From Thermoleophilia bacterium (GTDB lineage: Bacteria; Actinomycetota; Thermoleophilia; Miltoncostaeales; Miltoncostaeaceae), in the NCBI GenBank assembly GCA_028285405.1, contig JANQPH010000044.1, positions 62,001 through 126,000 on the forward strand: a stretch of 64,000 nt of DNA, in the 5' to 3' direction. A model generated the notes under the pieces. It did no database searches. It saw only the letters and a program-made list of their open reading frames with translations, and was not told the origin of the DNA. A program made the position numbers and the translations under genes. Shown one piece after another: positions 10,665 through 24,258 of the stretch. Positions within the stretch are counted from its first letter, which is position 1, and each line of letters begins with the position of its first letter.

Positions 10665-10908
10665 TAGCGGTGCCTCAGCTGACGTCGCCGGACCGTGGTC
10701 GGCCCATCGAGGGTCTCACTCGCGATCAGTGTTCCGGGGGCGAAAACCGAGCGCTGCGAGGACGCAGGGAGGCCCAATGGTGGATCCCATTGGGCCGACG
10801 GAGGACGAAGGCGTTCGGCAGCCGTCGCGACAAGGGGTGCAGTGACCGCGCCAGCGCGAGAGTTTGCAGCCTGCCGGAATCCGGTGATCGTTGGCTGAGG
10901 CACCGCTA
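10665..10908. repeat. 244 bp imperfect palindrome between nuoK and nuoL
   Basis: Perfect 15 bp terminal inverted repeats TAGCGGTGCCTCAGC (10665-10679 and 10894-10908) bound a region that can fold almost end to end. The arms continue with partial matches inward (ACG, CCGGA, GATCA-TG blocks). The centre is a perfect 10 bp stem, GGCCCAATGG with CCATTGGGCC, around a 6-base loop (10771-10796). The nuoK stop codon TAG is the first three bases of one arm, and the nuoL ATG follows the other. The short open frames on both strands are by-products of the symmetry. A related 81 bp copy lies between nuoH and nuoI. It looks like a MITE-like or REP-like element, and transcribed it would make a long hairpin. 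Confidence 0.7.
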
Positions 10909-11789: not shown

Positions 11790-12254
11790 TCACTGGCGAC
11801 CGGACGGCTCGGTTCGGATCGGAACGGGCTTCGGCGACGGTGCCAGGAGCATGTCCTTGTCGTAGATCTCTGCGATGCGGCTCGGCTCGGACAGCTCGTA
11901 CTCGGCCTCGAGCGTGATCGCGTCGAACGGGCACGCGACCTCGCAGTAGCCGCAGAAGATGCACCGCAGCATGTTGATCTCGTAGATCTTCGCGTAGCGC
12001 TCGCCAGCCGACACCCGATTCTCGGCGGTGTTCTCCTCGGCGACGACCCGGATGCAGTCGGCCGGACACGCCGCCGCGCACAGCGAGCAGCCCACGCACT
12101 TCTCGAGCCCGTTGTCGTGCAGCCACAGCCGGTGACGACCACGGAAGCGCGGCCAGACCGGCGTCTTCTGGTCGGGGTAGTCGATCGTCTCTGGGGACTT
12201 CAGGAACTGCTTGAAGGTGACGCCGAAGCCCTTGATGGAGTCCTGAACGCTCAT
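11790..12254 (-). CDS. nuoI: NADH-quinone oxidoreductase subunit I
   Basis: A 154-residue ferredoxin-like subunit carrying two [4Fe-4S] clusters (N6a and N6b) in the electron path from NuoG to NuoB. Cys53, 56, 59 and 63 form one CX2CX2CX3CP set and Cys98, 101, 104 and 108 the other. The N-terminal amphipathic stretch anchors it to the membrane arm. ATG start. The 85 nt separating it from nuoH is taken up by a palindromic element. Confidence 0.97.
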   Translation of the reverse strand: MSVQDSIKGFGVTFKQFLKSPETIDYPDQKTPVWPRFRGRHRLWLHDNGLEKCVGCSLCAAACPADCIRVVAEENTAENRVSAGERYAKIYEINMLRCIFCGYCEVACPFDAITLEAEYELSEPSRIAEIYDKDMLLAPSPKPVPIRTEPSGRQ

Positions 12255-12262
12255 GTCAGTCC

Positions 12263-12343
12263 TAGTGATGGGTCAGCCGGCGATGCCGGAATCGGGGGGA
12301 TCCTTCGCAATGGTCGGTTGATCGTTGTCGGCTGACTCATCAC
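12263..12343. repeat. Shorter palindromic element between nuoH and nuoI
   Basis: GTGATGGGTCAGCCG (12266-12280) and its partner CGGCTGACTCATCAC (12329-12343) pair at 14 of 15 positions, with a GGATCC-containing middle. The nuoH stop codon lies inside the right arm. The left end TAGTGATGGGTCAGCC, then CGAT and CCGGA, lines up with one arm of the nuoK-nuoL element (TAGCGGTGCCTCAGCC, CGAT, CCGGA). Both elements also contain GGATCC and CAATGG centrally. I infer this is a shortened member of the same repeat family. Confidence 0.6.
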
Positions 12344-13335
12344 GAGTTCTGGAACGCCACGCCGACGACGATGATCGTCACGAGCAGGTTGAGCGTGGCG
12401 ATGGGCAGGAGCACCTTCCAGCCGAACTTCATGAGCTGGTCGTAGCGAAGGCGCGGCATCGTGGCGCGCAGCCAGATGAAGCCGAAGATCAGCACGGCCA
12501 TCTTCAGGGCGAGCCACCACACCCCCGACATCCACGGGCCCGCGAAGCCCCCGAGGAACAGCGTGGCCGCGAGCGCCGAGACGACGAGCAGGTTGATGTA
12601 CTCGGCGGTCTGGAACATCGCGAACTTCAGGCCGCCGTATTCGGTGTGGTACCCGGCGACGAGCTCGCCTTCGGCTTCGGGCAGGTCGAAGGGGGCCCGG
12701 TTGACCTCGGCGACCATCGCGATCAGGAAGATCAGGAAGCCCACCGGCTGGAACAGCACGTACCAGACCGTCTCCCGCTGGGCGTCGACGATCTCGGTCA
12801 GGTTGAGGCTCTGCGAGAGGACGATGACGCCCACGACCGAAAGCCCCATCGCGACCTCGTAGGACACGAGCTGCGCCGCGGTTCGGGCCGAGCCGAGGGT
12901 CGAGTACTTCGAGCCGCTTGCCCAGCCACCAAGGATCAGCCCGTAGAACCCGATCCCGCTGAGCGCAAAGAGCAGCAGCAGCCCGACGCCGATGTCCGCG
13001 CCGACCAGCTTGATCTCGGTCCCGCCGATCGTGATCGGGTCGCCGAAGGGGATCAGCGCGATTCCGGTCACGGCCGCCGCGACCGCGATCACCGGAGCGA
13101 TCGTGTAGATGAACCGGTCTGCCGTCTTCGGGACGAAGTCCTCTTTGAAGATCAGCTTGATCACGTCGGCGAGCGGCTGCCAGAACCCCGCCGGGCCGGC
13201 GCGGTTCGGTCCGGGGCGCGCCTGGAAGCGCCCGAGCGTCCGTCGCTCGATCAGCACCAGGTACGCGAACACCGTGATGACGACGAAGAAGATGATGATC
13301 GCCTTCACGATCTGTACCCAAACGGGTTCGCTCAT
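12340..13335 (-). CDS. nuoH: NADH-quinone oxidoreductase subunit H
   Basis: A 331-residue, eight-helix subunit homologous to ND1 that forms much of the quinone-binding chamber next to NuoB and NuoD. Signature segments are LIERRTLGRFQARPGPNRAGP, PLADVIKLIFKEDF, EVNRAPFDLPEAEGELVAGYHTEY with its cluster of conserved acidic residues, and LRATMPRLRYDQLM. The ATG at 13335 gives the usual N-terminus before helix 1; a longer upstream frame is arginine-rich and overlaps nuoG, so it was rejected. 26 nt separate it from nuoG. Confidence 0.97.
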   Translation of the reverse strand: MSEPVWVQIVKAIIIFFVVITVFAYLVLIERRTLGRFQARPGPNRAGPAGFWQPLADVIKLIFKEDFVPKTADRFIYTIAPVIAVAAAVTGIALIPFGDPITIGGTEIKLVGADIGVGLLLLFALSGIGFYGLILGGWASGSKYSTLGSARTAAQLVSYEVAMGLSVVGVIVLSQSLNLTEIVDAQRETVWYVLFQPVGFLIFLIAMVAEVNRAPFDLPEAEGELVAGYHTEYGGLKFAMFQTAEYINLLVVSALAATLFLGGFAGPWMSGVWWLALKMAVLIFGFIWLRATMPRLRYDQLMKFGWKVLLPIATLNLLVTIIVVGVAFQNS

Positions 13336-23659: not shown

Positions 23660-23667
23660 GGGCTGCC

Positions 23668-24258
23668 TCAGCCCTCGGTGGAGGCGCGGGTGGCTGTGCG
23701 CCTGCGCTCGACCCGCCGATAGGTCGCGCTTCCGGCGCCCGCCAGAAGGAGCAGGCCCGCGGCGCCCGACAGCACCAGGAACGCGAGCGGGACCTCGTCG
23801 CCGGACGTCACCTGGGGCGGCTGAGGGAGCTCGCGAAAGGCCGACAGGCCAGCGACGTCATCGGCGCTCGGCGCGAGCTCGTTCGCCCGCTGGAGCGCCT
23901 CCGGGGTGAGCGAGAGCACCGGCTCCTCGCCGCCGGCCGGTGCCGAGCGCGGCACGGGTGCCGGGAGCGGAGGCTCGACCGGTGTCGGCTCTCCGCTGGG
24001 GGTGGAGCGCTCGAAGCCGAGCAGCCGCTCGTCGATCTGGCGCTCGACGGCGTTGCGGAAGGTCTCCTCGTCGACCACCGCCGGGATGTCCGCGAGCGCG
24101 GCCCGCAGATCGGCGACGGTGTGCGCCGAGTTCAGCTCGCCGTTGTCGAGGTAGTCGGCCAGCACGTCGGCCGGGGTCGCCGTGGCCGCACCAGCCCCCA
24201 AGGCAAGCGCCACAGCGGCTGCGGCGACAGCTTTCCCGACGTTACGCATCCAGCGCAT
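23668..24258 (-). CDS. Exported protein with C-terminal membrane anchor
   Basis: A 196-residue protein. The N-terminus is a signal peptide of about 27 residues (basic MRWMRNVGK, alanine/valine core, cleavage likely after ATATP). The middle is hydrophilic, with a helical part (DVLADYLDNGELNSAHTV) and a proline-rich linker near 110-130. The C-terminus has one helix, AFLVLSGAAGLLLLAGAGS, then an arginine-rich cytoplasmic tail. This is the layout of a cell-surface protein held by a C-terminal anchor, though there is no LPXTG. GGAGG lies 8 nt before the ATG. No family recognised. Confidence 0.65.
   Translation of the reverse strand: MRWMRNVGKAVAAAAVALALGAGAATATPADVLADYLDNGELNSAHTVADLRAALADIPAVVDEETFRNAVERQIDERLLGFERSTPSGEPTPVEPPLPAPVPRSAPAGGEEPVLSLTPEALQRANELAPSADDVAGLSAFRELPQPPQVTSGDEVPLAFLVLSGAAGLLLLAGAGSATYRRVERRRTATRASTEG

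What the first reader, a model, noticed from the sequence alone, without database searches (positions are those of the whole stretch)
12263..12343. Second, shortened copy of the nuo palindrome between nuoH and nuoI
Seen: arms GTGATGGGTCAGCCG and CGGCTGACTCATCAC, with the nuoH stop inside one arm. The left end aligns with the nuoK-nuoL element (TAG-G-TG--TCAGCC--CGAT--CCGGA), and both have GGATCC and CAATGG in the middle. Two related palindromes starting at a stop codon in one operon suggest a repeat family with insertion preference after stop codons. The ten bases TGCCTCAGCC also recur at 23663-23672, at the stop of another gene.
Basis: partly seen in the sequence, partly recalled or inferred. 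Interest (0 to 1): 0.6.

Follow-up and report, generated by a model that had tools for sequence, protein, structure and literature searches.

The report
Stop-codon hairpin mobile element relic
The hairpin between nuoH and nuoI is most likely a shrunken relic of a small non-coding mobile element, apparently not yet described, that spreads in a group of bacteria by inserting into gene stop codons without breaking the genes.

Summary
The palindrome (element 2, 79 bp, window 12265-12343) is real. Its arms alone are within chance for this window, and its similarity to the nuoK-nuoL palindrome (element 1, 10667-10906) is weak. Comparative evidence still ties it to a mobile family. The middle of element 1 is a conserved core of a dispersed repeat family of about 165 bp: 25 of 61 searched genomes, up to 61 copies each. 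Relative G013 has an empty site with nuoH ending in CTAG; G019 carries a full-length member at the same nuoH stop. Elements lie between copies of TA, mostly in CTAG, and CTAG in this genome often sits at TAG stop codons, which explains the stop-codon preference. Arms differ between subfamilies, yet all 19 outer pairs show compensatory changes, and G.T mismatches exceed A.C 72 to 9 on one strand. The element therefore seems to act as a folded single strand (RNA or ssDNA), unlike an ordinary MITE. Element 2 lacks the core; comparable core-less derivatives occur in G004. No autonomous partner was found, and Y1-transposase, reverse-transcriptase and IS630 genes are missing from most high-copy genomes, so the mobilising enzyme is unknown. 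Rfam gave no match.

The parts
12265..12343 (+). element 2: core-less 79-bp member; + strand is the inferred sense strand (antisense to the nuo operon)
   Evidence: sequence; + strand fold z -6.3; + strand folds 14.5 kcal/mol better than - strand, 14 of 300 shuffles as large; empty site in G013 and full-length member at the same stop in G019
12265..12279 (+). left arm of element 2
   Evidence: 14 of 15 Watson-Crick pairs plus one G.T with the right arm, read from the sequence
12329..12343 (+). right arm of element 2
   Evidence: as above; contains the present nuoH stop
12262..12265 (.). CTAG at the nuoI-side end; TA at 12263-12264 is the intact target copy
12344..12345 (.). GA at the nuoH-side end, inferred to be a mutated TA target copy (- strand CTCG where G013 and G019 have CTAG)
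   Evidence: comparison with G013 and G019; inference
12340..12342 (-). nuoH stop codon TGA, supplied by the element
12252..12254 (-). nuoI start codon
10667..10906 (+). element 1: full family member (240 bp, with an internal insert of about 38 nt)
   Evidence: covariance model R1, E 3.1e-16; core homology in relatives
10734..10880 (+). conserved core of element 1
   Evidence: alignment A1, structure
10665..10666 (.). TA target copy at the nuoL side of element 1
   Evidence: sequence
10907..10908 (.). TA target copy at the nuoK side; with the element's first base it forms the nuoK stop TAG (- strand, 10906-10908)
   Evidence: sequence; nuoK reading frame

Best explanation
Element 2 is a decayed, core-less member of a family of small non-coding mobile elements that insert at a TA dinucleotide, mostly within CTAG. 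The full element is about 165 bp: 19 or more outer base pairs of freely varying sequence, an inner purine-rich conserved core (AAGGACGCAGGGAG, hairpin, CGACYGAGGACG), and a G at the 5' end of each strand. CTAG is rare in this genome and often is a TAG stop codon, so insertions land on stop codons; TA plus the element's first G remakes TAG, so the upstream gene stays intact. At nuoH the ancestral end was CAG AAC TAG; the element entered there, the core was later lost by internal deletion, the nuoH-side TA copy decayed, and the TGA inside the arm now ends nuoH. Shown: family, dispersal, TA/CTAG ends, stop-codon placement, compensatory arms, strand asymmetry, empty and filled orthologous sites. 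Inferred: that element 2 once had the core, and that an enzyme acting in trans recognises the folded sense strand (ssDNA or RNA) and moves it.
For: Core of element 1 is a multi-copy repeat in relatives; model R1 hits 25 of 61 genomes, with 58, 57, 61, 46, 31 and 17 copies in G004, G019, G059, G002, G058 and G053. nuoH-nuoI: 27 of 30 loci have gaps of -1 to 46 nt; G013 is ccagaaC[TAG]tggggacagcATG (empty); G019 holds a full-length member at gcgaaC[TAG]..CTAGgactctcATG; G000 holds element 2 before CTAGgactgacATG. nuoK-nuoL: 24 of 27 loci have gaps of 0 to 46 nt; G004 has a truncated member at the nuoK stop. CTAG within 6 nt of the left end in 25 of 61 and of the right end in 18 of 61 elements, control 0.7%; TA outside the terminal G/C in 30 and 31 of 59. 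Of 64 element sides where a gene was predicted to end, 32 stops lie at offsets -1 to +1. Structure: 45 pairs, 40 with changes on both sides, covariation 0.717 against 0.246 shuffled and at most 0.175 slid. Outer arms 72 G.T against 9 A.C, p 1.2e-10 after composition; sense strand more stable in 60 of 61 and above its own shuffles in 58 of 61. Core-less or core-trimmed derivatives in G004: 117 bp at C101, about 46 bp at C58 and about 50 nt at C151.
Against: Element 2 has no core, so its membership rests on position, ends and fold; its palindrome alone and its likeness to element 1 are weak; its strand asymmetry is only marginal (14 of 300), and element 1's is not significant (41 of 300). Its arms differ from those of the G019 member at the same site, so the two insertions need not be the same event. 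Only 61 of 113 named elements passed the arm cut, and only 14 of 61 have CTAG at both ends. No enzyme is known and no movement was observed.
Confidence: 0.72

Rival explanations
1. Ordinary MITE of a DDE transposon of the IS630/Tc1-mariner kind: double-stranded terminal inverted repeats are bound by a transposase encoded elsewhere, which inserts at TA.
For: TA target copies, exact at element 1; palindromic ends; size; no ORF seen in the elements aligned. IS630 preference for TA in CTAG is known (title of Tenzen and Ohtsubo 1991, seen only in the reference list of PMC2170065).
Against: Terminal sequence varies freely while the core is fixed, the reverse of a MITE; G.T/A.C asymmetry has no reason in duplex TIRs; no longer element with the same ends; DDE_3 found in only 8 of 61 genomes, not in G000, G004, G019, G002, G053 or G058.
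Confidence: 0.2
2. REPIN-like element moved by a RAYT (HUH Y1 transposase) acting on folded single-stranded DNA.
For: Strand-specific folded palindromes, conserved irregular core, trans mobilisation without an internal gene; TnpAREP is strand-specific for folded ssDNA (passages of PMC8266576).
Against: Y1_Tnp found in 18 of 61 genomes but not in G000, G004, G019, G002, G053 or G059; no GTAG tag; a TA copy at both ends.
Confidence: 0.12
3. Element 2 is a local regulatory or stabilising hairpin of the nuo operon that arose in place and is unrelated to element 1.
For: Weak likeness to element 1, chance-level arms; hairpins near stop codons can affect translation (REP literature, passages of PMC12306157). 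G058 also has an 85-nt nuoH-nuoI gap with a different inverted-repeat-looking sequence.
Against: Absent from 27 of 30 loci; ends at CTAG exactly where G019 carries a family member; sense direction opposite to transcription.
Confidence: 0.15

Closest known systems
REP/REPIN elements and RAYT (TnpAREP)
   Same: Short, intergenic, palindromic, multi-copy, strand-specific fold, no own gene, often near stop codons (passages of PMC3733652, PMC8266576, PMC12306157)
   Different: REPs are 20-40 bp and GTAG- or CGTC-tagged; these are about 165 bp with TA/CTAG at both ends, a long conserved core and freely varying arms; Y1 genes are missing from most high-copy genomes
IS630/Tc1-mariner MITEs
   Same: TA target duplication, CTAG preference, inverted terminal repeats
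   Different: Terminal repeats not conserved but compensatory, strand asymmetry, no IS630 gene in most high-copy genomes
HEARO and similar mobile structured RNAs (recalled, no call; one search listed no paper)
   Same: Structured RNA-like mobile unit at a fixed short target
   Different: No match to any Rfam family at E up to 1 in 10 loci, none meaningful for the window; no associated ORF found

Membership tests
The core-bearing family described here | conserved core (model R1) | tested here: not met
   Element 2 not hit; only element 1 significant in the own genome. Element 2 is therefore filed as a derivative, not a full member.
The core-bearing family described here | TA/CTAG at both ends at a gene stop | tested here: met
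   CTAG at 12262-12265; the other end is CGAG on + (CTCG on -), one base from CTAG; G013 and G019 have CTAG at nuoH
The core-bearing family described here | sense strand folds better than its complement | tested here: inconclusive
   Element 2 + strand 14.5 kcal/mol better, 14 of 300 shuffles as large; element 1 41 of 300
IS630/Tc1-mariner MITE | TA target duplication | tested here: met
   Element 1 TA/TA; 17 of 59 elements TA at both ends, 30 left and 31 right
IS630/Tc1-mariner MITE | ends shared with an autonomous element | tested here: not met
   None found in the loci held or with arm patterns in G004 and 61 genomes; draft assemblies limit this
IS630/Tc1-mariner MITE | IS630-type transposase in high-copy genomes | tested here: not met
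   Absent in G004, G019, G002, G053 and G058, present in G059
REP/REPIN with RAYT | GTAG tag | tested here: not met
   Ends are TA-G...C-TA
REP/REPIN with RAYT | Y1 (RAYT) transposase present | tested here: not met
   Absent in G004, G019, G002, G053 and G059, present once in G058
Rfam families | match to a curated covariance model | tested here: not met
   only miRNA-like or CRISPR-repeat chance matches below gathering scores
Mobile element in general | movement observed | not testable with these tools
   Only copies, empty and filled sites were compared

The most novel reading that the evidence does not exclude
A new kind of bacterial mobile element: a non-coding unit recognised through the fold of one strand, whose conserved core rather than its ends is the recognition site, whose arms need only pair, and which uses TA plus a leading G to remake the stop codons it lands in; moved by a still unidentified enzyme that is neither RAYT, reverse transcriptase nor IS630.
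Probability: 0.4. Interest if true: 0.82.

Novelty: new variant of a known kind. Interest (0 to 1): 0.6.

Why it matters
If right, a widespread stop-codon-targeting non-coding element in Thermoleophilia and apparently one or more other groups of its phylum has gone undescribed, and its strand-specific compensatory evolution points to mobility through a folded single strand without the usual enzymes. It gives a testable route to a new mobilising activity, and explains palindromes at gene ends in these genomes, including two in the complex I operon, without invoking regulation.

Tried and rejected
Rejected: element 2 as a direct copy of element 1; the ten-mer at 23664-23673 as a member; a third CTAG-anchored hairpin at G000:C37 near 221959, which lies in repetitive Pro/Ala-type sequence with long open frames and has no sense-strand advantage; a plasmid reservoir (one query, no match); a phage vehicle (one viral contig only). 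Reverse transcriptase: RVT_1 in 4 of 61 genomes, among high-copy genomes only G059. Autonomous long version: none. A cis-acting mRNA role: tandem gene contexts are 17 sense and 31 antisense (p 0.06), 22 convergent, 8 divergent, of 109 examined. Replication-strand polarity was considered and not run: the eight listed copies of G025 are too few.

Rows dropped before counts: of 123 pattern matches 113 had enough flank and 61 passed the arm cut; 59 of 61 gave an end register; A2 holds 35 non-redundant elements. The named set was selected by an exact core pattern, so core invariance in A2 is by construction; arm pairing is partly so, because arms were chosen for complementarity (the slid and shuffled controls do not remove that), but the G.T/A.C ratio is not. 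Model R1 was built from 16 copies including element 1, so element 1 matches partly by construction; its relationship was first seen by DNA search. Genes flanking the elements were called by a simple GC3 rule in a script, not by a gene finder. In one search loci on the reverse strand were not yet turned; one search replaces it.

Full report
What is there. The nuo operon runs on the - strand. Between nuoH and nuoI lies a 79-bp hairpin (element 2, 12265-12343); between nuoK and nuoL a 240-bp one (element 1, 10667-10906). As a bare palindrome it is not remarkable in this window (2 seen, 1.87 expected). As a fold anchored at CTAG it is: z -6.3 on the + strand and the best of 140 CTAG sites in 461 kb.

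The family. A DNA search with element 1 in 60 relatives showed that its middle is a repeat, with at least 12 scored copies in G004. Copies are framed by palindromic arms that often begin and end with CTAG. A covariance model from 16 copies finds 25 of 61 genomes positive at E 0.01, with 61, 58, 57, 46, 31 and 17 copies in G059, G004, G019, G002, G058 and G053, while nearly all genomes of genus g9 have none. In the own genome only element 1 is significant. In a phylum sample 21 of 296 genomes are positive, including families f9 and f45 outside the class of G000. One viral contig matched.

Structure. In 35 non-redundant elements, 45 pairs hold in 89.8% of cells (63.8% when shuffled), 40 pairs have changes on both sides, and all 19 outer pairs do. 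Mismatches in the outer arms are 72 G.T and 9 A.C on the core-sense strand, p 1.2e-10 after correction for composition. The sense strand folds better than its complement in 60 of 61 elements, 59 of 116 in flanking controls; part of this is composition, but 58 of 61 exceed their own shuffles. Duplex terminal repeats give no reason for such asymmetry; a folded RNA or ssDNA does.

Target. CTAG is within 6 nt of the left end in 25 of 61 elements and of the right end in 18 of 61, against 0.7% at control places. With the terminal G/C as reference, TA precedes or follows in 30 and 31 of 59. Element 1 is flanked by TA on both sides. In the window CTAG occurs 15 times against 68.7 expected, and at least 12 of the 15 end a frame of 150 codons or more (by comparing); in the 461-kb sample 73 of 140 do. 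Of 64 element sides where a gene was predicted to end, 32 stops fall at offsets -1 to +1. A TA insertion of a unit beginning with G remakes TAG; at nuoK the flank suggests TAA became TAG (inference).

The nuoH site. Of 30 loci with nuoH and nuoI, 27 have gaps of -1 to 46 nt. G013 ends nuoH with CAG AAC TAG and has no element; G019 has a full-length member at the same AAC TAG; G000 has element 2 there, with CTCG for CTAG on the nuoH side and CTAG on the nuoI side; G058 has a different 85-nt spacer. At nuoK-nuoL, 24 of 27 loci are short; G004 carries a truncated member. All four nuo insertions have the (inferred) sense strand opposite to transcription; over 109 named elements the tandem cases are 31 antisense and 17 sense. 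In G004, shortened derivatives of known full-length members occur (117 bp, about 50 nt, about 46 bp), so a core-less element 2 has precedent.

How it may move. Shown are dispersal, target and strand-specific structure. The enzyme is unknown: no longer element with the same ends; Y1_Tnp, RVT_1 and DDE_3 are each missing from most high-copy genomes, within the limits of draft assemblies (G002 is 73% complete). I favour an unidentified enzyme acting in trans on the folded sense strand.

Literature. Searches (Thermoleophilia with palindromic and transposable; with structured RNA) returned nothing; others returned REP, MITE and IS papers. I read passages of four papers, no whole text. None of these passages describes this family. 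Rfam 15 has no credible match. This is a limited search.

Noticed in passing
window, whole: CTAG is about 4.6-fold depleted (15 against 68.7 expected) and most of the remaining sites are stop codons, some shared by two convergent frames (38545, 43227, 49424).
   Followed up: partly
L249: Two family elements abut head to tail and share a CTAG, as if one had inserted into the end of the other.
   Followed up: no
L263: A family element in a viral contig sits at a TAG stop beside a terminase-like frame (name recalled, not scanned) and next to a thioesterase-like frame, perhaps a prophage edge.
   Followed up: no
L161, L179, L204, L210, L216: Core-bearing copies with inverted arms of only about 103-105 bp and no outer arm seen: perhaps a shorter subfamily.
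   Followed up: no
L291 (G058), nuoH-nuoI: An unrelated 85-nt spacer with inverted-repeat-looking stretches at the same junction.
   Followed up: no
L274-L276, L278, L280, L281, L285-L288, L292 (genus g9 relatives): An extra open stretch of about 460-500 bp lies between nuoI and nuoJ in these genomes.
   Followed up: no
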